Assembly: GCA_019973155.2 (NCBI GenBank)
Contig: BPQB01000085.1
Location: forward strand, 62,001 to 126,000
Reading direction: 5' to 3'
From: Phanerochaete sordida
Lineage: Eukaryota > Basidiomycota > Agaricomycetes > Polyporales > Phanerochaetaceae
Length of the DNA stretch: 64,000 nt
Within the stretch, counting starts at the first letter, position 1. Each line of letters begins with the position of its first letter. The position numbers and the translations under genes are program-made. The notes beneath the pieces were generated by a model. The model worked only from the letters and a program-made list of their open reading frames with translations, was not told where the DNA came from and ran no database searches. Positions 522-46,128 of this stretch are shown piece by piece.

Positions 522-2141
522 CTACAGACGTGCTCTAGAGTCATTCGCAAGTGAAGGCGACACATCGATTGGCCTAGACACGCTCCTAACCTCCATGTCG
601 TCTTCGTCGTCAGAGCCGAATCTTTCGGCCTGCGAATAATCCAGCGAGGCACCAATATTCCCGATGACATGCGAGGTTGCAGAGTCTCTGTTCAGGTTTG
701 AGAGCCGAGGTAGTAAAGAGTTTGTGGGCTCTCCCGCGTCTGTACAATCCCGTAGATGTAGGAGAAAGCGCGAGATGACCACCGGAGGCTGTGTGCGAAG
801 TCAGAGGATGATGATAAGCGTCAAGCGAGGCGTCTACGAACGAGATATGCGCCAACGGCGTTGAAACCTTGGGTTGACTAAGAACCGTTAGCGACAGTTG
901 AGAGTCAGAGGTTTGTCCACAGCGTACGGTGAGACTCCCAGCCAGGATCCCCGCGTTCATGCCGAGCAGCACCCTGTGCCATATTTCAATTACCTGCGTC
1001 CGATGATCATTGGTCGTAACGCACAGGAAATAAAACGTCCCTTGTATCAGATGAGTATTATTCGCGCTGTAGCCACGCAAATCGCACCGTCTCTGATAAG
1101 GTACGATGTCACTGGCAGAGCTACGCTCAGGCGACGGGAATTTTGCCACTGGTGATACGTTTTCGCCCACGTAACGACCAAAACGAGGACATCAGCTGTA
1201 ACGACAGACGTCCTTGTGAGTATAGATACTGTGGACAGACGTCAGTCGCATTCGCACCGCCATGAAGCAATGCATACGTCTAGAAATAACGCACATTCAG
1301 TAGCTGCACATCAGGGCGAACCAAGAGAACGCTCACTTTGTGTGCAGTGAGCCCGAAATCCCCACGACAGTCGCCCCGCATGATGACCAGCTCCCGACAA
1401 AAACGTAATGAGCCATCGTGTACTGCAGAAATATTAGCGTCATCTCTATAGGAATAGCATCAGATACCAGCGAGATTGGTTCCGATTGGCATTGAGCTCA
1501 GCACCAGCACGGACACGGAAAGCGCCAGATTCTTCTCTGTCAGGGCATATACCCGTAGGGAGGAGAACACTGAATGTCAGACCCGTCCGTCAAGGGGTCT
1601 TGGGCCGGATCTCTTCGCTGGGAACTCACATGCCGTCTGTGCGAAGCCTAGTATTTGCAGCCCAGCTTCGGATACACCCTCCGCTATGCATCTATGCAGA
1701 ACGTCAGCCGCAGTCAACCGAAGACGCGCCAAGCACATTCACCCCTGGCAGGTTTATCAGCCCAGGTACGGCCTCTCTAATCAATCAGCGTACCTTGTGG
1801 GTGGTGGCCGGGGTAAACAGCAAAATGCTGTTCAGGAACAGCGTCCAGCGAACGCTGATAAGCAGGATTGAGGTCGCTGTCTTCTTGCGCTGCCACGCCG
1901 TGATGACCTCCAAGTCCAGGTTGATGATGAACTCGTGCATGCATAGCGCTATAATAGAGGGCGTATCAGCAGGCGCAGCTCCAGGAGGTGCGCATAGACA
2001 CTTACCAGCGAGAGCGTAACCTTCACAGTTCGCGACGAATCTATGATATGGTCAGATAACGCGTCGATATCCACAAAGCGAGGTGTTTTACTCCGCGTTC
2101 AACCCTGCTATCACTTCTGCCAAAGAACCATCGGCAGACAT
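522..2141 (-). CDS. DUF6533-domain multi-pass membrane protein (copy A)
   Basis: Member of a membrane-protein family expanded in mushrooms; its function is not known. The start at 2141 gives a short first exon (MSADGSLAEVIAG...). A first intron begins GTAAAA and ends at CATAG. A second intron (GTAAGT...TATAG) splits the codon just before LCMHEFIINLDLEV. The DUF6533 core then reads EVITAWQRKKTATSILLISV, followed by hydrophobic exons. The C-terminal exon has the SRFLLHLRD block and an acidic tail, NIGASLDYSQAERFGSDDED. The tail and both N-terminal intron positions recur in the genes at 25.3 and 27.7 kb, so the three are paralogues. It lies downstream of the Pex8-like gene on the same strand. 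The stop at 522 is immediately followed by a GT donor-like sequence, so a further exon cannot be excluded. Confidence 0.75.
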
Positions 2142-2699
2142 AGCAGCAAGTCCCGTCAGCTTCAGCTCACCAGGCCCCAGCCGGGAGAGCCTGCGATATA
2201 AAGTGCGGAGCAAGCGCGTTGCTCGAACGCCGCTCCCGACAAAAACCGCGTGTAAATCCTCGACGGCTCATGCGCGGCGATGTTATGTCTCAGGGTCGAA
2301 GCGCCTCGCCCACAATCAGCATCTACCTCAGCGAGCAAGGTCCGACCTTCGCCGCACTATGCCTGGGAGTCTGTGGCGACGCTGGTCAGCAGAAAGCGCA
2401 GAACGTGGCTGGGACCCGCAGAGTGCTCACGACGGCGCCTCACGACAAGAGTTTGCACGCGCACTCGCAATTGCGAACTTCAAATTCGTCGACAGAAATG
2501 ATGTCCAAAATCCTCATTGACATTGCTGACGTGCCGCAAAGCGCTACCTGATACATTGTAAAATACCCTGTGGGACGGGCGGAGATCAGAAACTGCTCGC
2601 ACGTCGTGTACAACGGCCCTACCTGTCATATTCCAAATTCTACTGTGAACTGTCCCCGAGGGTGCGGGTGTCGCAGCGATGGTCCCTCCCCGTTGATGA

Positions 2700-5337
2700 T
2701 CACAATCGCGCCGCGGTCTCGCGCGCCTTGCCCTTGCCAAGCGTCGGAGGCTGCAGCTCCGCCTCACGCTCCCCGCCCGCCTCCGCCCCTCGCGGGCCGC
2801 CGACCCAGCCTGCGACCCACCGCTTGTGCTCGCCCCACCACCGCATCGCGTGCTCCTTCTCCTCGTCGCCGACGTTGAGTAGCTCCTCGAAGAGCGTCTT
2901 CGCGAGTTCTTCACGGTCGCTGTGGTCGTCCGACGAGCCCTGCGCATCGGCGTCTGCGCTTGAGGCCAGGCTTTCGAGGACTTCGAGGATCGAGCCCAGC
3001 AGGCGCGGGAGCAGGCGCAGCGAGACGGACGGGACGGTCGAGATGAGCGTGAGCACGAGCTTCTGGCGGTGTTCCTTCTCCCTGTCCGAGAGCGCTATGT
3101 TTGGGCGGGCCTTGATCGCCTCGAGCAGGAGCGCAATGCAGAACCAGGCGTAGGCGTCTCCCTCTGACGTCCGTGCGCGACGATCATCGGGCTTTGAGGT
3201 AGCGCTGTCCCGCGACGAACCGAAGACGGACGCACAGCCGACGAGGGCGGCGAAGGCCAGGCGCAGCTGGGTCGTGTTGAGCTTGTCAGGAGAGGAATTC
3301 TGCGCATACAGTCAGCCCCGAAAGCATCCGAGGAGATAGCTTCGTCCACGTACGTCGATGAGACACTTTGCATACGCCGGCACGACTTGCTCAGCGAAGG
3401 GCCACCGCGACTCCTCTGAGCTTATGGTCTCGCTCTCCACCTGCAAGGCTGGTGTCTCGACCACGGTAGTCGCTGCCAAGGACGACGGCGCGTTCACAGC
3501 AGCAGATGCGCTGCCGGCTCGTCGTTTCTTCGCATGCGCAGAGAACATTGCCAGCATGACGCTATGCGCTGACTCGTATGTCTCCCGATGACTCGGGTCG
3601 TTGAGATGCCTGATACACGTCGTCAGCCAAAGAGCCAGAGGCTAGTGTTGACAAAAGCTTACGGCTCGCACATCTGCCAGACGTCGTCTCGCATGGTGCG
3701 GTCGTCCAGGACCGCGACGAGCTGCTCGACACACGCCAAAGCGTACGCTTCCTTCGCTTTGAGAAGATATGCGGGCAAACCTGGTGGAGATCAATGTTAG
3801 CGGAGCACCGCTAGAACCCGGGTGGAAGTACCTCTCTGTCTCGTCCGATTGACATCCTTCTGGAGCTTCCGCACCAGCACTCGGCTCTCGTCAGCCGACG
3901 TAGACAGCACGTCGAGCGCAGTGTAGAATCCCTTAAGCAACTCTGGCAGGGCTGACGACGCCGTTGACGAGACACCGCCGAAGCGAGGGAGGATGAAAGA
4001 CAGGTGAGACAATGTTCCCAGCGTCGCATGCGTTATACTGAATGGCGTGGGCGATTTGTCCGCCGAGTCCAGAGATGCCGGAGGAGGCGGGACGAATAGG
4101 ACAACGCTCATGGCTTGTTGCAAAAGGCGGACGGAGGTGAATAATAGAGTCTTGAATATCGTCCACATCTTCACTGCGACTTCCTTCGTCTGTGATGCTG
4201 AAAGACCAATCGGCACGTTGGAAAGGAGGGCTATATGGAATGAAAGGACTGCATACCTAGAGACTCGTCGTCATCTACACTTGCCAGGGGACACAATGAC
4301 CATTCGTCTTCCGCAGTCTTTGCAAGTAATGAGACAATTTGTACGAGCTTAGAGACGGCTGTCCACGCGTCCGCCGGTCGGCTGTCGGCGAGGACGGAGA
4401 TGACCTGCGCATACATCGCAGAGATGGTGGCCATATGCGTCAGTAGAAGCCCACTGGATACCTCCTCGATGGTCCGAAATATAGGCGAATCGTTCTGCAT
4501 GGTAAAGTCGGCATTGCATTAACGGTACTAATACGAGTGTACTGACGGCGATGGCAAGCTTCCCCGATTCCGTCGTGACAAAGGGGGTTTGTAGCTCCCG
4601 GAAGAACACATTGTGCCAAAACGCTTTATTGAGGGAGGATTGGAGTATGCGGCATAGGTCGAGGAGTGGGAGCGCCCCGAGTCTGTGCGGGGCGACGAAT
4701 GGTAATGAGCGAGAGGCAATCGCGAGTGCAGCGGGCACAGCATCTGGCACTCAGCAGTCAGTCTGAGCATACACACACAGGGTGGCACAGACGCACCTTG
4801 CTCCTGCTGCACCTTCGACCTGAACTCTGCCTGCCAAGGATCCACCGCCGCCGGCGCACTCGCGTACTCCACGACCTCCGCTAGCGCGACGAGGAACTCC
4901 TCCTCGACGGTCCGCCGTGCCGAGCTCCTCTCGAGCTTGAGCTCCGCCTCCCTGTCGACCATGCCATGCAGCAGGCCCGCGCAGCACGCGAGGCGCAGGA
5001 CCGCGTGCCCGCCCTGGAGGCCCTGGAGCACCTGCGCGACCCACTCCGCGACGAGCGCGGCGGTGCTCCGCGCGAAGAGCCCGCCGGGCTGCGCCTCGAG
5101 CGCCGCGAGCTTCAGGTGCACGGCGTGGCGGCACGCGGTGAGGAGGCCGTCGAGGTCCGCGTGCGCGTGCGCGCGGAAGAGCGCGCTGCTGACGACGGAC
5201 GCGGCGAGCGGCGTCGCGGACGGCGCCGCGCGCGCGAGGTGGTGCGCGACGGAGCCGAGGACGGTCGTGAGCGGGAGCGAGGTCGACGGCCGCGAGAGGT
5301 GGGCGACGAGGTTGAGGTAGCCGCGGTCGGCGGACAT
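2700..5337 (-). CDS. Pex8-like peroxin (tentative), C-terminal PTS1-like ARL
   Basis: Multi-exon gene for a largely helical protein with no cofactor or catalytic motif. The N-terminal 180 residues (VLGSVAHHLARAAPSATPLA, then ...LLTACRHAVHLKLAALE, LVAEWVAQVLQGLQGGHAVL and CAGLLHGM) follow the helix-by-helix pattern I recall for fungal Pex8. Pex8 is the intraperoxisomal factor that links docking and RING peroxins. The protein ends in ...ETAARL, which fits the PTS1 consensus [SAC]-[KRH]-[LM], as expected for Pex8. Later blocks include ISAMYAQVISVLADSRPADA, AYALACVEQLVAVLDDR and MRWWGEHKRW. The start at 5337 is chosen over 5352 because the decayed duplicate at 21985 conserves an ATG at this position. 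Family assignment is from memory; an unnamed alpha-solenoid protein is the alternative. Confidence 0.5.
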
Positions 5338-5684
5338 CGCGGTTAGAGGCAAGGAGCGGTTCCCCGCACGCTCTGATGGCGGCCGGGCGCGTCAGAGCAC
5401 CCGAGCCCGGCGGGCGCCACAACGCCCGAGGCTGCGTTCGGGCAACGATAGCCTCCAGCGACGAGGATCCGAGATAAAACGCCGTATCTTTTATTGCGTC
5501 TGCACGTGAGGTACATTACAGGTGGATGTAGTCAGGAGAAAGCAAGAGACGTATGATACAGCGGGCCTGGGCCGTCTATGGTTAGGTGGTGAGCTGGGGG
5601 TCATTATAGAGCAATAAATACGAGATATGAGCGATATAAAATGTCCAGAAAGAATCCGAGAGAAGGAGAAGACTGAAAAGACGT
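5338..5684. other. intergenic: Pex8-like promoter and alternative oxidase 3' end
   Basis: About 350 bases between two minus-strand genes. No further reading frame is supported. A CACGTG hexamer lies near 5504. Confidence 0.5.
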
Positions 5685-7204
5685 TTAGTGTCTGCCCAGA
5701 AGCTTGTGTGATTCTTGCACGTATTCTTCCGACTCCGACCGCTCGAAGCTGCAGGAAGGATCGTCAGGAAAGTCCGCTGACAATCGGCGATGGATGACAT
5801 ACCCAAGTTTGGTTCCCTTGACGTGCATGTCAGGCTCGCGCAGCGCAAAGGGGTTGATGTCCGTGCTCGGGTTGAGGTTCGCCAGACTGTGGTTCACGAA
5901 CCGGTGCGTGCTCTCGTCGCTGCGCACCGCGTAAAGGACGTCAATCATCTTGGCGTCGGGCCTGAGCCGCCAGTAGTCTTTCGCGATCTCCGGGGCTTCG
6001 ACGTTCTCCCTGTTGAGGCGTTAGTGCGCCGCACACGCCGACACAACTCAAAAACTTACCACTCCGGAATGCGGCCTTGCTCGAGGTCGCTGATGCAGCG
6101 GGTGCTAGCGCCGGTGTGAGCTATACTTGTCGGCGAATGGCATGAGGCACTCACTAGGTGTGGACGGCTTCCTCCTCGAGATACGCGACGAAGCGGTGAC
6201 AGATCTTCGGCGACACGAGGTACGAGAGGACTAATGGAAGCACGGGTCAGATAACAGGGCGGCAGAGACGGCGGCAGCGACGCACAAAAGGCGTTGTAGA
6301 AGACCCCCTGGGCGCCGAGCACGAGCGCGCGGAAGAAGATGGACGGCTTCCGGATGGTCATGAAGGTCATGAGGTGCATGCGCTCGTTCTCGGCCTCCTC
6401 GAGCAGCGTGTGGATCCAGCCCGCGTCGCGGCGCTGCAGCGATGGTCAGCGATGGGCGGGCGCACACGGGGACGGGGGACGCACCATGAGGCGGAGGCTC
6501 CGGAGGTGGCGGAGGGTCGCGGCGACCATGCCGGGCACGCCGGCGATGCTCTCGAGGAAGAGGATGCGCGAGAGCCACTGGTGCTCGGTGAGCGCGTAGC
6601 CCTGCCTACGGAGCTGCTCGAGCGAGAGGCCTTCCGCGGGCGGGACATGCTTCTCCTTGTAGCCCGAGACGAAGTCGAAGGAGCGGCGGGCGAAGCGCAC
6701 GAGCGCGCGCGCGACCTTGTCGGGGAGGGTGGTGGGGTCGCGGTGGACGACCTGTGGGAGAACGCTCAGCCGGCCCTGCGCTTCGTGGCGCCTGTCCCGT
6801 GACGCACCTTAACGGCCTTGAGCTCTTCGTCCGAGTACACGGGGTGGAAGAGCACCCAGTCTCCGCGGATGAGCGGCGCCTGCTTCACGGCGTCGGGGCT
6901 CACGGCGTCGGGGTGCGTCAGAGCCTCCTCGACGGCAGCAGGATGCTGAGGCGCGAGGTCCCCTGCATCCAATTAGCAGCGCGGCGCGTAAGCATGCTGA
7001 CGACGTACGTCTGTGCAGGCCCTCGGTGCCCTGGACAGCCTTTTCATCCGTCGGCTTTGCGGACAAGGCGTTTCGGCTCGGCGTGCTGGTAGAGAATGCG
7101 CGCGGGTAGGTGGCGACGAGGAGCCGGCTCGCGGCCTGGGGCGTGAGAACGAGCCGCTGCGACGAGGCCCGCAGGGCTGTCGATGTGCAGACGGTGCGTA
7201 GCAT
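5685..7204 (-). CDS. aox1: Alternative oxidase, mitochondrial
   Basis: Di-iron ubiquinol oxidase of the inner mitochondrial membrane. It oxidises ubiquinol and reduces oxygen to water without pumping protons. The N-terminus ([20 protein letters not shown]) is an arginine/serine-rich targeting peptide. The family motifs follow in order across several exons: [13 protein letters not shown] (first iron-ligand glutamate), [26 protein letters not shown] and [19 protein letters not shown]. All six usual Glu/His ligands are visible. The variants LES and RSDE stand where many homologues have LET and RADE. A phase-2 intron splits the tyrosine codon of VHTY. The start at 7204 is preferred to an in-frame ATG at 7270, because that one abuts the apparent TATA box (7271-7278). 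The C-terminal tail beyond the catalytic core is about 60 residues. Confidence 0.95.
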
Positions 7205-7270
7205 GGGTAGTTGTGCAGGGAAAATGAGTCGAACACGGTTGGTCGGCGCCGCCCTGGAGGCTGGCAACAC

Positions 7271-7278
7271 CTTTTATA
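7271..7278 (-). promoter_or_regulatory. TATA box of the alternative oxidase gene
   Basis: TATAAAAG on the minus strand, about 67 bases upstream of the ATG at 7204. The spacing is compatible with a short 5' UTR and argues against a start at 7270. Confidence 0.55.
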
Positions 7279-8077
7279 CAGGCTCACTGGCATTGGCTGA
7301 GCGCCCCGTCTCGTTCCGAGCCGTCCGAGTGCGACCGCACAGGCCAGTGCTACAGGGGCGGCGCTGGCGGGGCGACTATTCGGAATGGCGCGCGGCTGCG
7401 ATCATGCAAAGGCCACTGTTCGACCTCTGGGCTCTTCTGGGATTTCCGCGGCGTGGATCGCGTCCTGGACAGCCCAAAACTAGGGCTGATAAGGAAGGTG
7501 GATGTCCACTTAAGGAAAGACCGTGCAAGCCGGGGTACCCCTGTAGCGCTCACGTGGCGGCCTCAGCCAATCAGGACGGGCGACCACGTAAGCAGATGAC
7601 CTCCGCCTCCAGGAGCTGTCGCCGTGCGCCTGCGCTGATTCCGAATCGCTTAGTCCAGGCGGCGCACCAGACTGCACGGGGGGCTCTACCATTCGGAATG
7701 CTCAGACGACACATGTTTTGGCCCACAATCGTCTCCAAAGATGGCGTACGGGGTTATGTCGCCATCGAAGACCTCGCTCGTACATACGACGCCGGAAGAT
7801 GCACCACTCACAGCGTCTGCTGCCATAGATCGCCGGAATCGGGCTGCAGAGGACTCGTCTGGCTCCGTATTGGACCGCGGAAGGGCACACGCAATCTGCC
7901 GTGCGGCAAAGGTAAATCGCCACGGGTACAGGCATGTAATAATGGTACGCGAGCAAGCCGTAGCTATACTTGCACTTCGGGCAAGGTAGGATGCCAAGGA
8001 GGCTGGGTCGCGCCAACACGATGCGCGTGACGAACCGGGCAGGGTGCCCAGTGAGGGCACGAGCGAGGCACGCTTTG
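7279..8077. other. intergenic: alternative oxidase upstream region
   Basis: A plus-strand frame (7110-8030) and a minus-strand frame (8060-7686) are both open across this stretch. Neither shows a domain, a targeting signal or a matching exon structure. I read the region as the alternative oxidase promoter plus the 3' UTR of the next gene. Confidence 0.4.
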
Positions 8078-8568
8078 CTAGGTTGACTTTGTCTCTTTGC
8101 TTTGCTCGCCAGCGAGCGAGCGCTCCTCGGGAGTGAGAGAGAAGAAGGCGTCACGCTGCTGCTGGAGCCATCTCCGTGGCTGGCGGAATGAAGGCAGGTA
8201 AGCCGAGGACGCGTTGCGCTGGGACGGGCAGCTCACCGGGCTGAACACATGCTCGTGCTCGCCAAAGTCTGCAAAGAAGACGCCGTAGAGGATGACGGCT
8301 GGTGTGTGCGCGGGTCTAGCGAGGCTCTGATGGAGGACGGTGATGGATACGCACCCGGAATGACGAGATAGTTGGACAGGCGTTGTGCTGTCCAGAACCA
8401 GGCTCGGCGGTGTTCCTGTGGCTCGGGGGTGTCGCTCTGGCCGAGCGGGGCGTGTGTCGCGGGCTTTGCGGGCTTGTGTGCGTAGCGACGGAGGCCCGCC
8501 GACGACGACGACGAGGGCGAGGCCAGCAGCGCACCCCGCGGGGGTCGGGTAAGGACACGGCCTATCAT
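8078..8568 (-). CDS. Small mitochondrial-type single-pass membrane protein
   Basis: Three exons joined at clean GT-AG introns (8362-8307 and 8235-8179, approximate) give a protein of about 125 residues. The first 30 residues (MIGRVLTRPPRGALLASP, then a serine run and LRRYAHKP) look like a mitochondrial targeting peptide with the RRYA-type cleavage context. One hydrophobic segment spans the first splice junction (YLVIPAVILYGVFFADFG). A charged, soluble C-terminus follows (PRRWLQQQRDAFFSLTPEER...) and ends in KETKST. The layout suits a small inner-membrane protein such as an assembly factor or accessory subunit, but I do not recognise the family. It lies head-to-head with the transcription factor at 8757, leaving fewer than 200 bases between the two starts. 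Confidence 0.65.
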
Positions 8569-8756
8569 GGGCTTGGAGGCTGTGTGCTGGTGGCGAGCAA
8601 CCTGGCTGGGGCCTGTCGCTAGGCGCCTGGGCCGTCGACCGCCGGCTGATGGAAAACGGACCGTCTCAAAATGGCAAGGGTCAGACATCTCCGGACTCGG
8701 ACTCGACTTCCTTGTCCAAGCTCTCTTGCCCCTGCCCATCCCCAACCGCCCCAGCG

Positions 8757-11700
8757 ATGGAGTACGACTACGAGGTCGACCTCCAGGACAACGACCAGCG
8801 CCCTCTGAAACGCCCCAGGCAGCGCAAGGAGGGGGACGACGGCCACCGCCCGTATAACCCCCAGTCCGGTCCGTCCGGAGTCCACTTAGACGTCGATGAC
8901 CACGCCGAGACGAGCGCGAGGAAGGGCAGGAAGAGGCCTCTCTCCTGCGGCGAGTGCAGACGGTGCGTCCCGCCCTCGCTCTACCCCAGCCGTCGAGCTC
9001 ACGACCGCGTACGTGGCAGACTGAAGCTCAAGGTATTGTTCGATACCCGGTGCGCCACCGTGTGATGCCTGACCCCACCCGTCGCAGTGCGACCGCGTCT
9101 TCCCCTGCCAGTCATGTCGCAAGCGAGGCTGCGCAGAGATATGCCCCGAGGGTGCCCTCACCGGGGGCAAGGGCAGCAGGTCGGTCCCACCGTCCCCCAA
9201 AGCCAAGCGTGCGCCGTTGACATGCCCCCAGGTTCATCCTCGCCAACACCGAGCAGCTCCACGACAAAATTAAGACGATGAGCGAGCGCATACAGCAGCT
9301 CGAGGACGCACTGCGGTCCTCGAACACGAAGCTGTCCCCGGCGGAGCACCCCCTCCTGCGGCAGGAGCTGTTGCTCATCAAGAAGTCGCCCGAATTGTTC
9401 GGGATCGATCAGCAGATGATGGTCCACGATACTACTCCCGAACGCAGGACAGAGGATCAACCTCGCACCAGCCCTGCAGTCTCGTCCAAGGACGGGGAGG
9501 AGGTAAGGCCCCCGTCCCATGCCTTCCCTGGCTCCGAACCGGGTGCTCACTCGCTCTCTGCCCTCCAGTACGCTACCACCTCCAACACCCCAGTCGGGCA
9601 GCACTACCACTCCAGGCAGCCAGAGATCTCCCCCGAGCTCGCCCGGCTCTCCCGCTCCTTCCCCTCGCCCTGGTCGATATGTTTCGAGCTGGACCTCGAC
9701 ATGCGGCAGCGGCTCCGGGACATGCTCCCGCGACGGGAAGACGCCGAGCACCTGTGTGAACAGGCCCGGCGGAACGCCTTCTGGCAGTGAGTCCTCGTCT
9801 CCGTCCATTTCGGGACGCGCCCGGCCGCAATTAGCTGACCTCGGGCTCACAAGACACCAACCGGACGCGAGCGAGACTTTCCTTCCTAATCTTATACACA
9901 GCGTCTACACCACGTCGCTACCCGCACTGCTGCCCCATCGATTGGGGCTCTTCCTTATGGTGCTCGCGATAGGTACGATGGTCGACCTTCGCCATGGTCC
10001 GGACAGGCACAAGGCCGAGATGTACCACAATCTCGCGCGTGCAGCACTGTGCGAGGTGCCTCTTATGGACGACACAAGTCTGGATGCTGTGAATGCCCTT
10101 GTGAGTTCTGCCTCGTAGTGCCGAGATTACCGGGCCGGAAAAAGCTAATGTGCTTCGTGCAGTTCTTCATGGAATGGTACCTCCTGACATTTTCCGACAA
10201 CAAGAAAGCATTGGAGTACGCATGGGGCATCATGGTCAGTACAAGAACAGCTGTTCTTTCCAACTGCCTTATCTGACCCGCCGTGCCCGCAGGGCCTTGC
10301 GACGAGGCTGGCATATTCGGTGAGGCACTCGTTCGTATGCACGGTTGCAGTTGTCCTAATCCGGGGACTGCGCAGATCGGCATCCGTACGTTCTCCGGGC
10401 GGGATCCCTCCTCTCCGCCAACGTTCACTGACATTTGGCGCCCCGCGCAGATCGGGATGGCGTTAGGTCGAAGCTTATTCCCGAGGAGTCTGACAAACGG
10501 CGGACGCTCTTCTGGGACCTCGTCGGTGCGGACGCGCGGCTGGTGAGTCCCCGCTCCGAGCGGTGCAGCCGTCCTCGCTATTCTTGATCGGTGCTCACGG
10601 ATGACGCCTGCCCGCGCTCAGGCCCTCATGCTTCGCCGCCCGCCGTCGGTCTGCATGCGCAATGTAGACGCCAGGCAGCCGGCGTTCAATGGCGACTCGC
10701 CGGACGCGCAGTGTCAGTACCTATTCCTGATTGTGCTCGGCGCCCCGTCGTGTCTCACCGCGCCCGCTCCGCAGATCATCACTGGCAGTACAGCTTCCTG
10801 GCGCACTGCATGCTCCCGGTCCTCGACCGTGTTACGTCCACACAGCCGACGGGCTACACCGAGATTCTCGGCCTCGACAACCGTGTCCGCAACTTCGACG
10901 TCCCGCCGATGCTGCAGATGGTCGACAACGACCGGGTGACGACCAACGAGGCCATGCAGCAGGCGATGACGGCGTGCACCCGCGAGATCGGTGCGAGCCC
11001 CCGCGTTACGCGTACCAGTGCCCGGATTTATCGCTGCTATTTTCTAGCGCTTCTCCACCTGCACAGGAACTATTTCACGCAGGCCCTGACGTCGTCACAG
11101 GAGTTCAGCATCAAGCACCGCTATGCGCCCTCGGTGCTAGCGGTGTACTCGAGCGCGTGCAAGCTGATCTGGACCGTCGACGCGCTGTACTCGTGGGAGC
11201 CGGCGTTAAGCTCGCGCTTCATGGTATTCTGGTCCAACTGCTTCTCTGCTGCGGTGCGTGTGGTTCCCTCGCGGGCTCCGGTGGCAGCATGCTGACGGGC
11301 GCGCGACCAGTGTGCGCTGTGCTTCCTCGTGTCACGCGCTCCGTCCCTCGGGATCACGCCCCGTGCGCTCCAGGAGCTGGACAAGGTGCTGACCTTGTTC
11401 AAGGACGTCGGCGACCATGTGCCCAAGGTCGCGTCGTATCTGGTGAGCGCCGTTGTCCATGTGCACCCCTTAGCAACACACCAACACAATAGCACAGCAC
11501 ATCCTCGACAAGCTCGTCGCCCGCGGGCGCGAACACTACGTGAACTGGCGCGGCGGCGTGCACACCGCGAACGACGAGACGAACGACGAGATCTGCCAGC
11601 TCGCGCGGCGCATCGTGCCGCCCGCGGGCGACGGCTTCGCGCCCGCCGACGCGAGCCTCGCGGACCCGTTCGAGTACGCGCACCCGCACCTGCGGCGCTG

Positions 11701-11959
11701 CCTCGACCAGGCGACGGCCGCGGACCCGTGCCTCCCGAGCGGCTTCCACCTCACGCGCATCCGCGGGCCCGTCGGCGCGATCATGCACGCGCAGTCCGAC
11801 GTGCGCTCGTACAGCGCGCCCGGGGAGCTCGCCGGGCGCGCGGGCGGGCTGTCGTGGTCCGCGGGCGGCAGCCGCGCGGGCTACGGCAGCGACTACGCGG
11901 CGGCGGCGGCCGCGCTTGGGGCAGACATCGCGGACAGCAGCTGGATGAGCTGGCTTTAG
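8757..11959 (+). CDS. Zn2Cys6 transcription factor with fungal-specific TF domain
   Basis: Nuclear DNA-binding regulator. After an acidic, low-complexity N-terminus the binuclear zinc cluster reads LSCGECRRLKLKCDRVFPCQ, then SCRKRGC and a further Cys, giving all six cysteines. It is assembled from three exons, the middle one only 13 bases (9020-9032). A coiled coil follows (LHDKIKTMSERIQQLEDALR). The fungal-specific transcription factor region runs through 9.7-11.5 kb: LPALLPHRLGLFLMVLAIG, EMYHNLARAALCEVPLMDD, FFMEWYLLTFSDN and RRTLFWDLVGADAR. The last exon ends ...DSSWMSWL at 11959. An in-frame ATG at 8649 is possible, but the conserved acidic segment starts at 8757. Target genes cannot be inferred. 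Confidence 0.88.
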
Positions 11960-18787: not shown

Positions 18788-19176
18788 CGACCCCCGATAC
18801 GTGTATCAACCTGGTGTAATTGTGCGTGCGACTGGTCTTTTTATTTGGTTAACCTGTATTTTCTTGTTTGCTTCTACACCCCACAGCCTATACTTCACGG
18901 ATACCTCCACATGCTTATTATAGCCCTGCTTATTGCTTATTACTATGATAAAATTATGTATGTGCTCGCTTAGTTACAGTCATCCATACAATTACAGTTA
19001 GGAGGAAAATCCGACGTTATGAGTACTGGGACAGGGACGGTGTGCAACTGCGAGATCGGCGACAGGATGAGATAGCATGAGGTATGGATGAGGGGCTCTT
19101 CCTACAGATGGCAGAGTGTCTAAACGATGCAGAATGAGATGGGACGGGACGATGGGTGATCAGGGGACTGTGAACT
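18788..19176. other. intergenic between convergent genes
   Basis: AT-rich 3' region between the Kelch-BTB gene and the RING ligase gene. No gene is seen. Confidence 0.6.
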
Positions 19177-21152: not shown

Positions 21153-21984
21153 GGCGTGTGCTGCGCTGCTGGGGGTGCTATTGGGATGTGTGTGGGGTGC
21201 GAATGGGGTGGGCGAGAGTGGCGAGGCTGCCTCTCGCATTCGGTGGTCAGTACACGGTAAAGAGCGACAGGATATGGCTAGGCTGGGATCACCGGGGCCG
21301 GCGGGGCTCGGCGGTCCGACGAGATTCAGGCCCAGCGACTGTGGCAACTGGGCTATTCGCCTCGACGTGCTCGTGCAATACGTTCAACTGAATTCAAATG
21401 ACGCTGGGTATGCTCAAGGGATTGCTCAAGATGCTTGCGCGACGCAAATACACGGAAGGTTCTTGCCCTGAGCTCTTAGAAATATTACAGGGCGGAAGCA
21501 TATTCATCATCAGCTTTGTCGGAGCTCAGATTTCCCCGCTTCGTCCGGGGCAAGGGGCGGCTTGGCGATAGCACGCTCACAAAGCCTCCGCTCGTACAAG
21601 CCCATAAAGAACGACAGTCGATACGACATAGCATCTGGCGAATATTCTTGTGGTGCTCCGCAGGCAATTTATCTCACCCGCTAGCTCAGTAAAAGTGCCT
21701 ATCAGCTCGCAAAAGACACTACAGCAGTGTCTTGACGCGCATCTATCCTGCGGGGACTGCTGCTCTCTGCACTCCCAGCAAATCGCGTTCGTCGCGGTGG
21801 TAGGATACAAAGTAAGCGGAAAACACTACAGCTCTAATACACCACTTCAAAGTGCCTGTAAGGATCTATTTGCGGAGACTAAAGCATCATTGAGTTTGTA
21901 ACAAATCGATAAAACTCCGAAAGGCCTCACTACAACACGCTGACCGGAACCGAGAGCCGGAACCACTCCTTGTCTCTGACCGTG
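21153..21984. other. intergenic between CHFR-like gene and decayed duplicate
   Basis: Contains the CHFR-like promoter and the left edge of the duplicated block. Short frames at 21577-21901 show no family features. Confidence 0.5.
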
Positions 21985-23930
21985 ATGTCCTAGGACCTCA
22001 AATTCACTGTCCTCCCCTGGCGATTGTCGGAAACTCTCCCGATTGCAACCGTCCTTGGCCTCCTCGCGCCTCTCCTCGCGCGAGCTTACCTATGCGCAAC
22101 GCTGTTCACCTTCATGAACGACGCGCTCTGAGTACGCGCACGTTCCGCGACGCCGCGCAGCTGAAACCCGCGGCGCTCGAAGAGCAGCCCGCAGAATCCT
22201 CCGCGCGAGGCTTCGCTGCGCAAGTCGCGTAGTGGGTCGCGCAAGTGCTCGCTGCCAAACATTTCTCGTCCCCGTACAGATTCGGGGTGCTCCTGCTCCT
22301 GCCTGTGCCGCATACTTCAGTCCTATCTCGATAGACCTTATGGCCACGTCTTGTTCTTGTTCTTTTTTTTTTTTTGCAGGAAACCGCAAGCTCCTTCTTG
22401 TGGCCACAGTCGTGAAAGCTTTTCGTCGCCGTCAGTATACTCATATTAGAACCGTCAATGTACTACTGACTTTCCCATTCTGAACGATTCGCCTGTCTTT
22501 GGGAGTATCGGAGAGGTACACAACGAGTTTTTTCAGCGCATATGGTTACATCTCTGCGATGTATACGCAAGTCATCTTCGTTCTCGCCGACAGCCGACCG
22601 GCGGACGCGCGGAAATATGGCCATGAGGTCCCTCGCGAGGGGAGTTGACGAGTCTCTAGGCATGCTGTCCTTTCGATTCATACAGGACCCCGTTTAACTT
22701 GCCAGCTGGCCACAGTCAGGTGCTGATCCAGACGTTACAAAAGAACACGGATCGGGCAACTTGGGGAGAACTACTTCTGTCTGGGCTCTCGTGGTGATTA
22801 GCTATGTAAGATAGTCTTCTTCAGATTTTTTTTCGATAACCTTCCCAAAGTGAAGAAAGCCTACGCTTTGCACTGTGCCGAGCAGTTCGTCGCACTATGC
22901 GAGACGACGTCTGGCCGATGTGCGAGCCGTGAGTATTTGTTCCCATTGGTCTTTGACTCCTTCACTAACGTTTCGACCTTCGTGTTAGGCATCTCATCGA
23001 CCCGAGTCACTGGGAGACATATAAATCGGTACATAGCGTCATGCTGGCAATGCTCTCTGCACGGGCGAGGAAATGTACAGCGAGCTGACGGCGACTACTG
23101 CCGTCGATGCACCGATGTTGCAGGCGGAGGTCAAAATCACAAACGCAGAGGAGTGGCGATGGGCATGCAGGGAACAGGGAACAAGTCGTGCCGGTGTATG
23201 CTCATTGTGTCATAGACGTACGTGGACATGACCATCCCCTCGAGTGCATCCAGTGTTGACTCCATGCGTAGGATTCGCCTCCCGGCATGCTCGACACGAG
23301 CTAGCTGCGTTTGCCGTATGCTGCCTTCGTTGACTGTAGGTTGACCTGGCTCGTTTCGGGATAGCCCTTCCTCAAAGGCCGAAGGTAGTCGCGTGGTGGC
23401 GCTCACACCTTGCTCGACGCTGCGCTCCTGCTCGACGCGACCAAGGACCGTTAGGCCATGGCGCTCTCGGGGGGATGGAAAAGGCGCACCGCCAAACGCT
23501 TGTGTTTCCCCTCATGTCGACCGTCTCACCCACCTCGCTTCGTCTGCTGGGCTAGATTCTCGAAACCCTGAAGGGTTCAGCCTCATGCGCGGACGCCGAT
23601 GAGCACGGCTCGGGAGACGACCATGTAACGTCGGCGAAGAGGAGACGGAGTATTCAATGGGGTGGTGGGGCGAGCACACGCGGCGGATTCCGGACTGGGT
23701 CGACTGTCGGCGAGAGGCGTAGGTAACCGGGGAGCTTGAGACGGAGCTGCAGCCTCCGACGCTCGGAAGGGGCAAGGCACACAGGAACGCGGCGCGCCTG
23801 AGATCATCAGCAAGGAGACACCATCGCTGCGACACCCGAGCTTGTGGCAAGGTTTGGCGGGAGGGCTTGGAGTATGACAGATAGGGCTGTTGGGGCGGTC
23901 GCGGAAGTAGGCACTGTCTGATTTATGCAC
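21985..23930 (+). pseudogene. Decayed duplicate of the Pex8-like gene
   Basis: An inverted relative of the minus-strand gene at 2700-5337. Matching blocks occur in the same order: an ATG at 21985 followed by a stop at codon 3; SETLPIATVLGLLAPLLARA; AAQLKPAALEEQPAE...WVAQVL near 22.15-22.25 kb with an internal TAG; intron-plus-exon sequence near 22.42 kb; ISAMYTQVIFVLADSRPADA near 22.56-22.6 kb followed by a frameshift into DESLGMLSF; KKAYALHCAEQFVAL near 22.85 kb with a short deletion; the segment starting RHLIDPSHW near 22.99 kb; and WWGEHTRR...LQPPTLGRGKA near 23.66-23.8 kb. Similarity continues into the 3' UTR. Retained intron sequence points to genomic DNA duplication, not a processed copy. 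Stops, frameshifts and missing pieces mean no full-length product. Confidence 0.9.
22363..22375 (+). repeat. Poly-T run inside the pseudogene
   Basis: A run of 13 T followed by GCAG. It sits where the parent gene has an exon start, so it may be an expanded polypyrimidine tract of a former intron. Confidence 0.5.
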
Positions 23931-25257
23931 GGTACACTGGATTGTTTACAATGAAAATATGCGAGCTTTGCAGGATGGTTGCGACTTGGATGTTGATGTG
24001 GGATTATGTACATTGGGCATTATCACATTTAGCAGATTTGAAGTTCGCATGTGCGATTGTAATGCAGACTGCCGCTGCATGACACACTGTCCAGGTAAGC
24101 ATCCTCGCAGCCATGCTCTGTTGTCTGTCCGATTGGCGTTAGAATATACCACTCGGCGGAGAGGTGCGAGCATTGCGAAAAGGCACGCTGCTGTGCGCAC
24201 AAACTGCTCGTTCCGGGGGAGACTGCAGAAGCAAAAGCAAGGCCTAGGCAGCCTGCCTCTGATCTATCGATGCGCAGCTAAGCTAAAGATTATGATATGG
24301 GCTCATCAGTGCCTGTCAAGGCTACGTTTGGGCAGGTCAGCATGGGCCTGCGTTTAGCTTTTGAGTTTTCGCCCTCAGGCCTCAGGGCCTCACCCCCAGG
24401 TTCCGCTTCAAGCTTGTGGTTTGTCGCTGCAGGTTAGACCGATCAGCATAGTACTCTTGTCGGTTGACTAGCATCGACTGTCCAGTATTACGATGCAGTC
24501 TTGGTCACCAAGTGCGTGCCAGTGAGCAAATGTTGCGCTGTATATTGTGAGCAGATGGTTGCGGTTGTAGTACAGTAATGCCGTGACAAATTTAAGAAGG
24601 TAGCGGCCTCATCAAGCAGTCATGCTGTGCTTGTGATTCGGGAGCAAAAGCCCGGATCCGGCCCGCAGCTGCTGCTTGATTATAATCGCAGCCAAGCAGC
24701 AGCATCTGTCTTGTGAATTGCCCTTCTACACTTATGATACGTTGAATCATGGCCGTTCTAGTGTCATACCATCCTTGTGGAGTAGCATTGTAATCTGTGC
24801 TGCGGTAGCCTTTCCTCAGTATCATATTAACATGAGCTTCCCTTGTCAAGGTCCGCTATACGGACGGCTGCCCTTCCTTAATACCGAACAACGTCGTGTT
24901 ATTGATCGGCCAGAGAATATTACTAGCACATGTTGTCCAATCAGGCACTTTTGTGCCTACAGGTCTGATCCTACCGCTCGCACTGGCCAAATTCTTGTCA
25001 AGGTTCAGATCTTAGTCCGATAATTGCGCAGCATACATGCACTGTCACCAGAGCTGTTCTTCGATTTGATCAATGGGAGAGTGATAGATGTATCAGACAG
25101 ATTCTATGTTGCTAACCAAGCTAGGAAGGCTGAAATAGAGCTCAATATACATGGGCTGAACTATATATAAGCTCGATACCAAGACTATACAGTACCGTCA
25201 GCTCAAGCATACTACTGAACACCCTCTCCATAGGGCTCTCACGCTGCATATCTCATC
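23931..25257. other. AT-rich intergenic DNA between pseudogene and DUF6533 copy B
   Basis: About 1.3 kb in which I recognise no gene. In the first copy the equivalent gap (2142-2699) is about 560 bases, so this copy has gained sequence or the breakpoints differ. Confidence 0.5.
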
Positions 25258-26947
25258 ATGGCATCTGAGACTCTGGCAGAATTTGTTGAGTTCGAGTGCG
25301 CAGTACCTATTCCGTTCTGATGCTTATCCGCTTACAAAACATGTTGCAGACGGGCTGAAGGTTCACTTATCTACGCTATGGCAGGCGAGTGCTCCTTGCC
25401 TCGCTGTCTACAGATATTGTGTGGTTGACTGGTAGTCTCCTACTCAAAGCGATCGCTATATACGAATTTGTGTACAACATCGACTTAGAAATTGCCACTG
25501 CATGGCGCCGCAAGAAAACAGTGACATCCTTTTTACTGCTTAGCATCCGCTGGAGTATGTTGGTCAACAGCATCCTCGTCATCTACCCTCCAAACGGATA
25601 CACAGTGTGTATACAAATCACGGATGTCCTTGTGAATTCCTATCTAACTTCGAACAAATCACAGGGGCGAGTGATCGTTTACATTACAATCACAGCCCTT
25701 AGCTGAGCTAGGTCAGCACTTTAGATGTGTTGCATTGCAGATCTTGCAAGGCGTCTTCATTGTAACAGGCTTGATACAGACTGCTTGTACGCAATATTCA
25801 TTTCTGCTCCGCTATTCAAGCTCTCTGATTCATAAGCACTAGTGTTTTCTGCATTACGAGCGTATGCCTTAGCAGACAGAAGCACCATTTTATTTTCCAT
25901 GGTCTTGGTTCTGAGCTTGGTGTCCGTGGGAGCCAATGTGGTCAGTCAGCGTTACAACTGTGCAAATGGAGCTTGCTGAAAGAGTTTCTATATAGTACAC
26001 CGCTGCTATTCTTGTTTTCTATCACAGCGGAGCATCATGCGTCTCTATACCAGCTGGCATGTCCGCTTCTTTGAGTGCAAAGTGAGTCCATACAGTAAAT
26101 CTGCGCATATGTTCGCCTGAAACTTCGCAACATGCCAGGTGTAAGTTTAACCAGCTGACCTCTCCAGTATCACCGAGAAGTAACTTGAATTTTCAGTGAC
26201 CATATCCACCCGATCCTCGTTGATAGCAGCCGACATTCTTGTGCTGGTGGTGACGTGGAGACAGACATTCTCGCAGTGGAAGACCGCTAGACGCATGCAA
26301 TTGCAATTGCCAGTCACCACATGCCTCATAAGAGATGGTAAGTTCACGGTCCTCCCCATGCCTATTGCTGCTTGAGTATCGATGGATAGGGACAGCATAC
26401 TTCCTGTATGTCACCCAAGCCCTGACCACATAGTCCTGTATATTTGGTAACAGATCGCAAACTAGAATTCTGCTTACGACCAATATCGCACTCCTGATCA
26501 CCAACCTTGTACCAGAAGACTCAGCAGTGCCTTTCAATCCAGTCGTAGCATATCTTGTATGTATGTGAGATTTTTGAAGCACGAACTCAGCTGAATGCTA
26601 CCGCACAGCCGCCTATCCTCGCCTCACATTTTCTGCTCAACTTGCGCAGTTGTGCCAATCATGGGGGCGCCATGGGCCGCAGTACACCACCACCGGCTTC
26701 AGCCCTTAACATCAACTTTGCCAGACCAGACCGGCTTGGCAACATCGGCGCGCCATTGGAATATCCTCAGGTCGAAGATTTGGAGCCCGATGATGATGCA
26801 GATCACACAGATGCTAAGGACGAAAACGTCTATACCCTGTCTGAGATACAGGAGGGCCATACTGCCTTCCTAAGTACCGCACAGAATTATCAATGGGAGA
26901 TCGAGGTAAGTAATCGTGATGCCCGTTCATCGGCTGAGTCCATCTGA
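25258..26947 (+). CDS. DUF6533-domain multi-pass membrane protein (copy B)
   Basis: Paralogue of copy A. Exon 1 (25258-25295, MASETLAEFVEFE) joins exon 2 (25350-25384, RAEGSLIYAMA), then exon 3 from 25450 (AIAIYEFVYNIDLEIATAWR, then RKKTVTSFLLLSIRW). The intron 25385-25449 starts with GC in place of GT; no GT alternative keeps the frame. Later exons give FSALRAYALADRSTILFSMV, LIAADILVLVVTWR and the SHFLLNLRS block. The acidic tail NIGAPLEYPQVEDLEPDDDA follows. The frame ends at 26947, but a good donor (GAG/GTAAGT at about 26906) pairs with an acceptor near 27008 that opens onto a 170-codon frame ending at 27527. The real C-terminus may therefore be longer. Local DNA is AT-richer than in copies A and C. 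Confidence 0.72.
25385..25449 (+). other. GC-AG intron
   Basis: Donor GCAG/GCGAGT and acceptor AAAG. Copies A and C have GTAAGT and GTGAGT at the homologous position, and the reading frame is only kept with the GC donor. Confidence 0.7.
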
Positions 26948-27742
26948 CGATTGCAATTGGCATTTCGCGCTGTGTTGAAGCACGCGGGCGCGAGTTCTAA
27001 TGTCGCAGGACCTTCACGCCTCCAGGTGTGAAATTGTGTCCCAATCCTCCGCAACTCTGTCGACTCCCCGATGGTGCCGCATTTACTTGCGGCTTGCAAG
27101 AACCGCAGATGGAGAAATTCTTGTAGTGCTCACCGAATATTTATGTCGTCGTTTCAGCAATCACATCCAACCTGAGAGGTACCGTCTGGGTCTTCGCCGT
27201 GCAGTGTGGCGCATCCCAGACAGGACTAACGCCGATGCAGCCATACGAGAGCGGCGGGCTACAGGCGTTCACAGGGCCTCCTCCAAGAACATAGATGTTC
27301 TCTACCGTCGTCGCTACTCGTCGGAGTCTATTTCATGCCTGGAAGGCGTGCACTCGCCGTCTCTGTACAACCGGTGCTGCGTAGATGACCAGCGAGCGGT
27401 CGCACTTGCCCTCAAGAATCAGCGAGGCGTGGCCGGAAGCGTTCCGATGAGCGGAGAACTTGAAGGACGTGCAACTCATTTATATGACCGCTGCACTGTC
27501 TGCTCTGCATCCGTTGCAGGATATTAACGATCCTAATTAAGGTATGATCATTCACCGGCGGTGCGTCTCCGACAGCTTGTAGCCGGGCAATGCCACAGCG
27601 CCCCGCAGCGTCGGACGACACGTTGCCCGACCATCCAAGCCGTATAAAACCCTCCGATGATGCATATAATACAATGGTGCGATTCGCTCGTCTATCTTTC
27701 GGCTCCTCTCGTTACGATCCGCAGGGTACAGGTCTTGCTTCG
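26948..27742. other. region between DUF6533 copies B and C; possible 3' exon of copy B
   Basis: Contains a 528-base plus-strand open frame (27000-27527) that could be the last exon of copy B. If it is not spliced to copy B it shows no domain of its own. Confidence 0.35.
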
Positions 27743-29504
27743 ATGACATCTGCACCACGCGCGGAATATATCGCTGGGCTCGAGGAGGCGTACGGGAGCC
27801 AATTCTCATCAGCAGCCAGTAAAACTCAGTAGAGGTTCATCGCAGATAGCTCGGAAAATGCGTCTACTACGCCATGGGTGGTGAGTGCACTCTCCACTGG
27901 CCTCCGCGCCCGCACCCTGCTGATACACCCGCTCTGAAGCGCTGTCCATCTACGAGTTCCTCATCGCCCTCGACGTGGAGGTGTCCACCGCCTGGCGGCG
28001 CAGGAAGACCGTGCCGTCCGTGCTCCTGCTCACCATCCGCTGGTGCATGCTTGCGAACGGCATCCTCACCTTCCTCCCCACGCCCGGCTTTACGGTCAGC
28101 GTCCCTCGGCTATCGTGCCCCTCTCGCGATCTCACCATGTCGACAGGGGTCAGTAATTTGCTGCATGTGTACACCGGAACACTCGTTGAACGTCTGCAGG
28201 TGCATGGTGTCCACGGCCCTTACCGCCGCGTTTAATCTCGTCGGGTTCGCCCAAGTTGCTTGTACGTCCGTCGGGCCCGTGCGGGCTCGTCAGTCGCTGC
28301 CGTTTACTGACGTCTGTCTCCAGTTTTCTCCGCTTTGCGCGTGTACGCGCTGGCGGACGGCAGTTTCCTGCTGCCCGCAGCTGTACTTGTCCTGAGCTTG
28401 GTGCCGCTCGGGATCAACGCGGTACGTAGCTTAGGTCTCGATGTTACGTGTCGTCTATGCTGACGTGAGCGTTGAGTATAGTACAGAGACTCGCATTATG
28501 CGTGTGTAACGAGAGGCGGGACGTACTCTGTAGTCGTCCACACATACGCGCACAACGCTCTGTGAGTGCCTCGATGTCATGGAACCACCGCCAGCTGACG
28601 TCTATAAGATGTGCGTCCTCTGTGGTCCGTGGTAGATATTGACTCAGGCCCGCTTGACGTTTCTTCAGTGACCATTCTGGCAAGGTGCACGTTGATAGCG
28701 GCGGACGTCATCGTTCTCGCCGTGACGTGGAGAAAAACCTTGCGCCAGTGGCGCAGCAGTAATCGGCTGGACATGAATTTGCCTGTGACGACTTGCCTTG
28801 TGAGAGATGGTAAAAAGCATACCTCATCGACATCGGTGAATGCCATCACTAACACCGTTTTCATAGGCACCACCCACTTTCTGTACGTATATTTGTTGCA
28901 TACTGTACCTGCACAGTGCCTTAATATTGGATCCAGCATATTACTAGGCATGAACATCATCAACCTCGTAGGTGTGCTCACCTGGGAAACGAAAATCCTG
29001 GGGCTGACCCCGATGATCGTCTATCTGGTGCGCAGCCTGCCTGGTCTGTCACGTTCTCAGTCTGTGCTGAGCACAGCCGCAGCCACCCATCCTCATCTCG
29101 CGCTTCCTTCTGAACCTGCGCGACTGCACAAACGTCTGCCCAGGGGGCGCGAGCTTGCAGACACTCTCCAGCCCCGGCATCAAGCTCGCCGCTCAGAGCG
29201 TGCTCGGTAACATCGGCGCGCCACTGGGCTGCCCGCGCGATGACGAGCTCAGCTACGCGACTGACAGCGATGCGCAGGACGAGAACGGGGGAGTGGATGA
29301 CCTCCTCGCGGATGCCACCGGTGCCGATCCTGAGGTCTGCAATGGGGCGTACGTGGCCCGTAGGAGGGCTGTGGAGGTAAGCCTCGCGTTATCTTGGCGG
29401 ATGCAGCCTCTGAGGATCTGAAGGACGTACGCATACAGGGCACACCAGACGGTCTATCGCAGGGCTTTTCTGCGAAGGTACATAAGGCGCAGGAGCCAGT
29501 GTAG
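27743..29504 (+). CDS. DUF6533-domain multi-pass membrane protein (copy C)
   Basis: Third paralogue. The core exon reads ALSIYEFLIALDVEVSTAWR, then RRKTVPSVLLLTIRW, preceded by a short exon ending GKCVYYAMG with a GTGAGT donor at the position conserved in A and B. Downstream exons give FSALRVYALADGSFLLPAAV, LTLIAADVIVLAVTWRKTLR, LVRDG and ISRFLLNLRDCTNVC. The acidic tail is NIGAPLGCPRDDELSYATDS. A last intron (GTAAGC...CTGAG) leads to DLKDVRIQGTPDGLSQGF and a stop at 29504; without that splice the frame stops at 29421. The first exon (MTSAPRAEYIAGLEEAY from 27743) is uncertain: I could not find a splice that keeps the frame without using an unusual acceptor (GATAG). GC-rich, like its neighbours. 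Confidence 0.68.
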
Positions 29505-45709: not shown

Positions 45710-46128
45710 TCCTTGCCTTTGAGCTGCTCTAGGTTCGTGTCAGTGGCAAATTGTGACCTTGTGCTGACACTTCGCCGTAGACGACCATGTCCCCCTGTGC
45801 ATAAGTTACCACGACAATACCAGAATATATGCTCAACACCGATGGAGTCACTCGTATTCGATAGTTGCATATTGTCTGCGCTGTGCATATATTCGTTCTG
45901 TTTTCCGTCCACGTTCAAAGCGCGATGACCTACCGGACGCTGTCTGTATCTTATCTGATAATGTTGGTTCGCGGGATCGTGTGCGGGACGGACTGGTCGC
46001 CACTTCTGCTTCTTACCACCACATACAAGAGCTTAAAAATCGACGGCTCTTCTTGTGGTCCCTGGTCGCAAAGTAGGATCCCTCAATTTCCGCAGTTATT
46101 ACTGACATGCGCCTTCTAGTTCAACGCC
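45710..46128. other. intergenic
   Basis: AT-rich sequence before the F-box cluster. No supported frame. Confidence 0.5.

What the first reader, a model, noticed from the sequence alone, without database searches (positions are those of the whole stretch)
522..29504. Inverted segmental duplication: Pex8-like plus DUF6533 block occurs twice in opposite orientation
Minus strand 5337-522 reads 'Pex8-like gene, then DUF6533 gene'. Plus strand 21985-29504 reads 'Pex8-like pseudogene, then two DUF6533 genes'. Order and relative orientation are kept, intron sequence and 3' UTR sequence are alignable, and the two arms are about 17 kb apart flanking six unrelated genes. This looks like an inverted genomic duplication followed by asymmetric decay. 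Such arms can drive local inversion of the intervening aox-to-CHFR segment.
Basis: seen in the sequence. Interest (0 to 1): 0.75.

Follow-up and report, generated by a model that had tools for sequence, protein, structure and literature searches.

The report
Old inverted duplication with dead Pex8
In a white-rot fungus a block with a peroxisome gene and membrane-protein genes occurs twice, facing opposite ways; in one copy the peroxisome gene has decayed while its neighbours kept reading frames, an ordinary kind of event apart from oddly tiny predicted exons in the neighbours.

Summary
Minus strand 5363-2462 (intact 771-aa Pex8-like gene) matches plus 21959-24059 (Pex8 pseudogene). The arm then runs off the left window edge: plus 27246-29492 matches window 254 to about -1959, so the second plus-strand DUF6533 gene (B2) pairs with a gene (A2) just outside the window. 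Pex8-like DNA was found at only these two places in the genome (Phanerochaete sordida YK-624). By the Pex8 tree the copies arose after the split from P. carnosa. Pex8B has 8 premature stops and 21 frameshifting gaps; B1 is open, B2 open but for one stop codon near its start.

Corrections: the middle pair A1/B1 aligns only in coding exons and is saturated at silent sites, so it is an older pair or diverged much faster. DUF6533 introns do not align above control. Silent divergence is uneven, so one event of one age is not proved. The longest exact match between arms is 27 bp: present-day inversion by recombination is unsupported.

Noticed: all six hand-built DUF6533 models need two exons of 2 nt; elsewhere the second one gave the best model in 22 of 26 modelled loci (14 more could not be modelled).

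The parts
2700..5337 (-). Pex8A: intact Pex8-like gene, 7 exons (5337-4797, 4743-4547, 4494-4257, 4197-3832, 3780-3663, 3609-3354, 3299-2700), 771 aa, ends in ARL (PTS1-like). Arm A similarity runs 5363-2462.
   Evidence: Gene model; identical to deposited PsYK624_145130; 64 of 73 listed proteins, itself included, end in a PTS1-like tripeptide
21985..23805 (+). Pex8B: Pex8 pseudogene; third codon of the aligned start is TAG; exon 4 largely missing. Arm B similarity runs 21959-24059.
   Evidence: 496 of 772 codons alignable, 8 stops, 21 of 25 gap runs over the gene span (introns included) not a multiple of 3; start read
522..2141 (-). DUF6533 gene A1 (group I), 13 exons in my model, 327 aa, open; lies in the stretch 2461-255 whose counterpart in arm B aligns only in coding exons. 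One intron has an unusual GC donor (GCTGGT).
   Evidence: DUF6533 over cut-off in exon frame 2051-1785; model; alignments
25258..26947 (+). DUF6533 gene B1 (group I), 12 exons in my model, 354 aa, open; two GC-AG introns; AT-rich (GC 0.48)
   Evidence: DUF6533 over cut-off in frame 25359-25706; model; GC
27743..29421 (+). DUF6533 gene B2 (group II), 12 exons in my model, open but for one TAG at codon 17; pairs with A2, which lies outside the window at -232 to -1879 (C85:61768-60121)
   Evidence: DUF6533 over cut-off in frame 27924-28235; models; 64.7% aa identity with A2, dN 0.24, dS 0.93
1..254 (-). Start of the second alignable part of arm A; it continues left of the window to about -1959 and pairs with 27246-29492
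27246..27742 (+). Arm B: intergenic stretch upstream of B2, alignable with 254 to -231; a 79-bp core (27397-27475 vs 105-27) is 81% identical
24060..25257 (+). Unpaired stretch of arm B between Pex8B and B1; single copy in the genome at this sensitivity
5364..21958 (.). Spacer between the arms (AOX 7204 to about 5690 on minus; CHFR-like gene on minus ending the spacer)
   Evidence: AOX model, AOX Pfam, PNPOx, sub-threshold RING and zf-CRD

Best explanation
A stretch of about 7.3 kb, read as Pex8, DUF6533 group I, DUF6533 group II, was copied as DNA and set in inverted orientation 16.6 kb away, in the Phanerochaete sordida lineage after its split from P. carnosa. Pex8A on the AOX side stayed intact; the second Pex8 was redundant and decayed by ordinary point mutations and small indels. 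DUF6533 genes, a large and growing family here, kept coding frames in both arms. The middle (group I) pair is probably not a simple co-duplicate: either two older group I copies existed and each arm kept a different one, or this pair diverged much faster. Shown here: the arms and their extent, Pex8 at two places only, decay of Pex8B, open frames of A1, A2 and B1. Inferred: one event for the outer parts, direction A to B, the history of the middle gene, and how the inverted orientation arose. The arms are now too unlike to be expected to recombine efficiently.
For: Antidiagonal and its continuation beyond the window. Retained introns. Two places genome-wide. Pex8A+Pex8B 100/100, P. carnosa next; polarised sites 8 for this grouping against 1 and 2. 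Nearly all change on the B branch, 0.84 against 0.035. Group I then group II order in both arms (groups supported 93/90 and 94/92). A2/B2 dN/dS about 0.26. No CpG bias in Pex8B: C-to-T type changes 83/492 at CpG, 149/809 elsewhere (p 0.50).
Against: Silent identity is uneven: fourfold sites 126/164 (Pex8), 72/128 (A2/B2), 25/78 (A1/B1) (p 2e-4 and 5e-11 against Pex8). A1/B1 (42.9% aa) are less alike than A1 and P. carnosa P0196 (52.9%); A1+B1 is not found as a clade, nor rejected (p-AU 0.32), and A2+B2 has only 72/77. At 487 compared Pex8 sites B shares more with A alone (78) than with P. carnosa alone (19), but A shares still more with P. carnosa alone (121), as B has decayed. Just beyond the arm ends identity is 0.46 and 0.49, a little above five shuffles each (0.36-0.42 and 0.38-0.45), so the exact ends are soft. 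No outgroup DNA was available.
Confidence: 0.6

Rival explanations
1. Layered origin: DUF6533 genes stood on both sides first, and Pex8 was copied later; or an old Pex8 pair was made alike again by gene conversion between the inverted arms before Pex8B died.
For: Pex8 introns (169/248) and fourfold sites (126/164) are more alike than those of A2/B2 (299/570; 72/128) and A1/B1 (246/549; 25/78).
Against: Same gene order and orientation in both arms; the Pex8 3' flank and the inter-DUF6533 stretch are alike to a similar degree (151/236 and 287/481), as one event would give. Constraint on Pex8A can explain part of the gap.
Confidence: 0.25
2. Tandem duplication in direct orientation, followed by an inversion that carried one copy and the AOX to CHFR segment, instead of a direct inverted duplication.
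For: A3 and A4 show that tandem duplication happens here. The present arrangement is what such an inversion would leave (inference).
Against: Nothing for or against was found; outgroup order was not available. It concerns only how the orientation arose, so it is compatible with the best explanation.
Confidence: 0.3
3. The arms act as an inversion switch for the AOX to CHFR segment.
For: Inverted repeats in cis can recombine in principle (general knowledge).
Against: About 65% identity with many indels; no exact match above 27 bp.
Confidence: 0.02
4. Assembly artefact: alleles of two nuclei joined in one contig of a short-read assembly.
For: The genome is a short-read SPAdes assembly (PMC8530024).
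Against: The copies differ by about 35% and one is a pseudogene; the contig holds no N. Repeats this unlike are not confused by an assembler (general knowledge).
Confidence: 0.02

Closest known systems
Inverted segmental duplication with a duplicated (unprocessed) pseudogene
   Same: Several genes copied together as DNA, introns kept, one copy decayed
   Different: Neutral divergence is uneven along the block and the middle gene pair does not align outside coding exons
PF20151 (DUF6533) tandem gene families of mushroom-forming fungi
   Same: Large family in the genome: 150 matches over the cut-off, with only 150 of 203 candidates scored; tandem copies
   Different: A local subfamily: the best genome matches of B1, after itself, are the other copies on this contig; predicted 2-nt exons
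Pex8 (peroxisomal biogenesis factor 8)
   Same: One relative (P0045) bears that name from its source, three others the label Peroxisomal membrane (protein); PTS1-like C-termini in 64 of 73. That Pex8 carries a PTS1 is recalled.
   Different: No Pfam family over cut-off in the copy used here; function untested
Ultra-short microexons of plants (1-nt exons of APC11 and VPS55; PMC8831610, passages read)
   Same: Conserved exons under 3 nt that gene annotation misses
   Different: A fungus, length 2 nt, in a large multigene family; no RNA evidence here

Membership tests
Inverted segmental duplication | Two multi-gene segments in opposite orientation with alignable noncoding DNA | tested here: met
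   Pex8 introns and 3' flank and the inter-DUF6533 stretch align above shuffles; order kept
Inverted segmental duplication | Uniform age along the segment | tested here: not met
   Fourfold identity 126/164, 72/128, 25/78 for the three gene pairs; rate differences could contribute
Duplicated (unprocessed) pseudogene: Pex8B | Disabled frame with introns kept | tested here: met
   8 stops, 21 of 25 gap runs out of frame, introns 169/248 identical
Pex8 | Homology to named Pex8 proteins | tested here: met
   P0045, E 3e-111, named Peroxisomal biogenesis factor 8 by its source; one name, as its depositor wrote it
Pex8 | Curated Pfam match | tested here: not met
   No family over cut-off for Pex8A; P0001 bears a precomputed PF27812, whose meaning was not looked up
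DUF6533 (PF20151) | Profile match over cut-off | tested here: met
   A1, B1 and B2 exon frames at 24.9, 25.2 and 27.7 bits, cut-off 24.1
Homologous-recombination inversion switch | Long, nearly identical inverted repeats | tested here: not met
   About 65% identity, longest exact match 27 bp
Ultra-short microexon | Frame and splice sites require it; residues conserved | tested here: met
   Six of six hand models; P. carnosa P0196 residues; second junction best length 2 in 26 of 32 modelled loci of 46 tried, shuffles 55 of 640. First junction only 11 of 22 modelled of 26 tried
Ultra-short microexon | RNA reads joining exon, 2 nt, exon | not testable with these tools
   No RNA data at hand

The most novel reading that the evidence does not exclude
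The DUF6533 genes that make up most of the arms, and many members of this large family elsewhere in the genome, each need a coding exon of only 2 nucleotides (two such exons in the six arm and neighbour genes), set between two short introns of mostly 45-65 bases. If real, a whole multigene family of one fungus depends on recognition of a 2-nt exon, or on stepwise (recursive) splicing at YAG-NN-GT sites, and automated annotation of the family is wrong at these points.
Probability: 0.6. Interest if true: 0.6.

Novelty: new member of a known kind. Interest (0 to 1): 0.3.

Why it matters
The duplication is a clear local example of unequal fates after copying: a conserved single-copy peroxin copy dies while copies of a fast-growing membrane-protein family keep their frames. 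It also shows how a window edge can look like asymmetric decay. The by-product may matter more: the 2-nt exon prediction in DUF6533 genes can be tested directly in any RNA data of P. sordida, and would explain why two deposited models of this family go astray at the same two places.

Tried and rejected
Chance similarity: rejected (E 3e-114). Retroposition: rejected, introns are kept. Dispersed multicopy element: rejected for Pex8, two places only; the unpaired 24060-25257 is single copy. RIP-like or CpG decay of Pex8B: no sign. Pairing of B2 with A1: rejected, B2 pairs with A2 outside the window. Inversion switch: unsupported. B1 brought in from elsewhere in the genome: its best matches after itself are the other C85 copies. 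RNA families: none in the window at gathering level. Outgroup order: only contig lengths could be used. Pex8 and AOX relatives lie on contigs of equal length in 7 of the 19 other species that I found by eye in both lists (all 73 rows, 120 of 289 rows listed), and of unequal length in 12; equal length suggests linkage, not order.

Microexon modelling, all runs: anchors too strict, 9 of 26 loci modelled (2 nt best in 6, none in 2, 12 nt in 1). One search, first junction, 22 of 26 modelled (2 nt in 11, none in 8, 5, 8 and 30 nt in 1 each); in this script the second-junction run was switched off. One search, second junction, failed for all 26 loci through a faulty anchor pattern. One search, second junction, 18 of 26 modelled (2 nt in 15, none in 2, 5 nt in 1). 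One search, second junction, 46 loci tried, 12 without anchors, 2 without a model, 32 modelled (2 nt in 26, none in 4, 5 and 26 nt in 1 each); without the six arm and neighbour genes 22 of 26 modelled. The 40 other loci were picked by me from the hits, not at random. Margins over the next length are often small. In A1 the script found no 2-nt model at the second junction (one intron has a weak GC donor) and in A4 it narrowly preferred 5 nt; both hand-made models have 2. At the first junction B1 can also be read without a microexon (best, second). The reference peptide was P. carnosa P0196; the loci are relatives, so the p value (1e-20) overstates independence.
Full report
WHAT THE WINDOW IS. 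The window is C85:62001-126000 of a held genome of 40.8 Mb in 222 contigs. Its Pex8-like protein is identical to PsYK624_145130 on a contig of 136,728 bases, the length of C85, so the organism is taken as Phanerochaete sordida YK-624, sequenced with short reads and assembled with SPAdes (PMC8530024, whole text read; the paper gives 341 contigs and 41.2 Mb, so the held copy differs somewhat).

Self-BLAST of the window shows an antidiagonal. With the rest of the contig added and a looser search the alignable parts are: arm A, 5363-2462 and then 254 to -1959 (negative numbers lie left of the window); arm B, 21959-24059 and then 27246-29492. The lone minus-strand DUF6533 gene of the window (A1) is therefore followed by a second, A2, just outside, which is the partner of the second plus-strand gene, B2. 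A3 and A4 follow further left, and a seventh copy lies at C85:45517-46401 on plus. Beyond the arm ends identity is 0.46 (inner) and 0.49 (outer), a little above five shuffles each (0.36-0.42 and 0.38-0.45). The spacer is 16,595 bp.

PEX8. Arm A holds an intact 7-exon gene of 771 aa. Of 73 proteins listed with it, itself included, 64 end in a PTS1-like tripeptide; one is named Peroxisomal biogenesis factor 8 by its source and three bear the label Peroxisomal membrane (protein), names being cut in the list. No Pfam family reaches its cut-off in the copy used here. In arm B 496 of 772 codons can be aligned; 8 are stops; 21 of 25 gap runs over the gene span, introns included, are not multiples of three; exon 4 is largely missing; codon positions 1, 2 and 3 are 73.8, 74.6 and 70.5% identical. 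Introns keep 169 of 248 bases. No third place was found in the genome by DNA search. A tree of 11 rows puts Pex8A and Pex8B together at 100/100, with P. carnosa next. Of sites with a clear outgroup state 8 group A with B, 1 groups A with P. carnosa, 2 group B with P. carnosa; over 487 sites A=B only 78, B=P. carnosa only 19, A=P. carnosa only 121, the last because B has decayed. The end branch of A is 0.035, that of B 0.84. C-to-T type changes are not enriched at CpG, 83/492 against 149/809.

DUF6533 GENES. I built gene models for A1-A4, B1 and B2 by hand. A1, A2, A3, A4 and B1 are open; A4 begins with GTG in my model, so its start is unsure; A1 has one intron with an odd GC donor and B1 two GC-AG introns. 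B2 has one TAG at codon 17 and may start further down. A2/B2: 64.7% aa, dN 0.24, dS 0.93. A1/B1: 43% aa, silent sites saturated. The tree of 12 rows has group I {A1, B1, P. carnosa P0196} at 93/90 and group II {A2, B2, A3, A4} at 94/92, neither starred, so the groups run in the same order in both arms. A1+B1 is not found but not rejected (p-AU 0.32); A2+B2 has 72/77. Between the two alignable parts, 2461-255 against 24060-27245, only coding exons of A1/B1 match.

AGE OF THE ARMS. Fourfold sites are identical in 126/164 (Pex8), 72/128 (A2/B2) and 25/78 (A1/B1) (p 2e-4 and 5e-11 against Pex8). Constraint on Pex8A can explain part of the first gap; I do not think it can explain A1/B1. The outer parts, Pex8 with its 3' flank and the A2/B2 stretch, most likely come from one block copy; the middle pair is either older, with a different copy kept in each arm, or has run much faster. 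A layered history or gene conversion of Pex8 stays possible.

DIRECTION AND MECHANISM. Pex8A is the intact copy and stands next to AOX. In P. carnosa Pex8, AOX and the nearest DUF6533 protein lie on contigs of the same length, 1,494,437 bases, so linkage, not order, seems ancestral; this rests on equal lengths. Over both lists 7 of 19 shared species have equal Pex8 and AOX contig lengths and 12 do not (by eye). The longest exact match between the arms is 27 bp, so recombination between them is not expected to be efficient (general knowledge of homology needs).

NOTICED: 2-NT EXONS. All six DUF6533 hand models have two exons of exactly 2 nt at the same places, between short introns. P. carnosa P0196 has the residues that these exons predict (Gly before Cys; Lys-Leu before the TR exon), whereas the deposited P. 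sordida models P0194 and P0195 depart at both places. A search over gene models with microexons of 0 to 30 nt, scored against P0196, gave length 2 as best at the first junction in 11 of 22 modelled loci of 26 tried, 8 of the rest fitting no microexon, and at the second junction in 26 of 32 modelled loci of 46 tried, against 55 of 640 shuffles (p 1e-20, overstated as loci are relatives). Margins are often small, and the loci were picked by me. The shortest exon reported in the P. chrysosporium P450 paper is 6 bp (PMC1184071, passages read); 1-nt exons are validated in plants (PMC8831610, passages read). My searches (8 papers, 102 with 10 listed; for DUF6533, 2 papers, not opened) listed no paper whose title or shown abstract describes this; that is not proof of absence. 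RNA evidence is lacking.

VERDICT. A real, old, inverted multi-gene duplication with asymmetric decay, of a known kind; the inversion-switch reading is unsupported; the by-product on 2-nt exons deserves an RNA test.

Noticed in passing
Window 1744-1743, 1279-1278, 25665-25666, 26139-26140, 28147-28148, 28609-28610; A2-A4 left of the window; loci L037-L076: DUF6533 gene models need two exons of 2 nt (YAG-NN-GT between short introns); at the second junction length 2 was best in 26 of 32 modelled loci of 46 tried. Only frame, splice sites and protein conservation were tested.
   Followed up: partly
105-27 (minus) and 27397-27475 (plus): Between the two DUF6533 genes a 79-bp stretch is 81% identical between the arms, more than the coding sequences around it; five frames of arm B in 26890-27527 gave no Pfam match over cut-off. 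Perhaps a decayed gene or a control element.
   Followed up: partly
24060-26947 plus: This part of arm B is AT-rich (GC 0.48-0.50) and CpG-poor (CpG o/e 0.72 against 1.05-1.20 in the five other stretches compared), although B1 in it is open.
   Followed up: no
46120-50691 plus, with a further match at 64036-65090, just right of the window: A direct repeat family of three copies, about 67-77% identical in DNA to each other or to the copy outside; three of its open frames gave no Pfam match at E 0.01.
   Followed up: no
C85:45517-46401 plus (locus L052): A seventh DUF6533 copy of the contig in the opposite orientation to A1-A4; length 2 was best at both microexon junctions there.
   Followed up: partly
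11814-11841: A 28-bp palindrome, 92.9% self-complementary.
   Followed up: no
Deposited models PsYK624_145090 and PsYK624_145100: They match A3 and A2 but leave the conserved protein at the two 2-nt junctions, so are probably misannotated there.
   Followed up: partly
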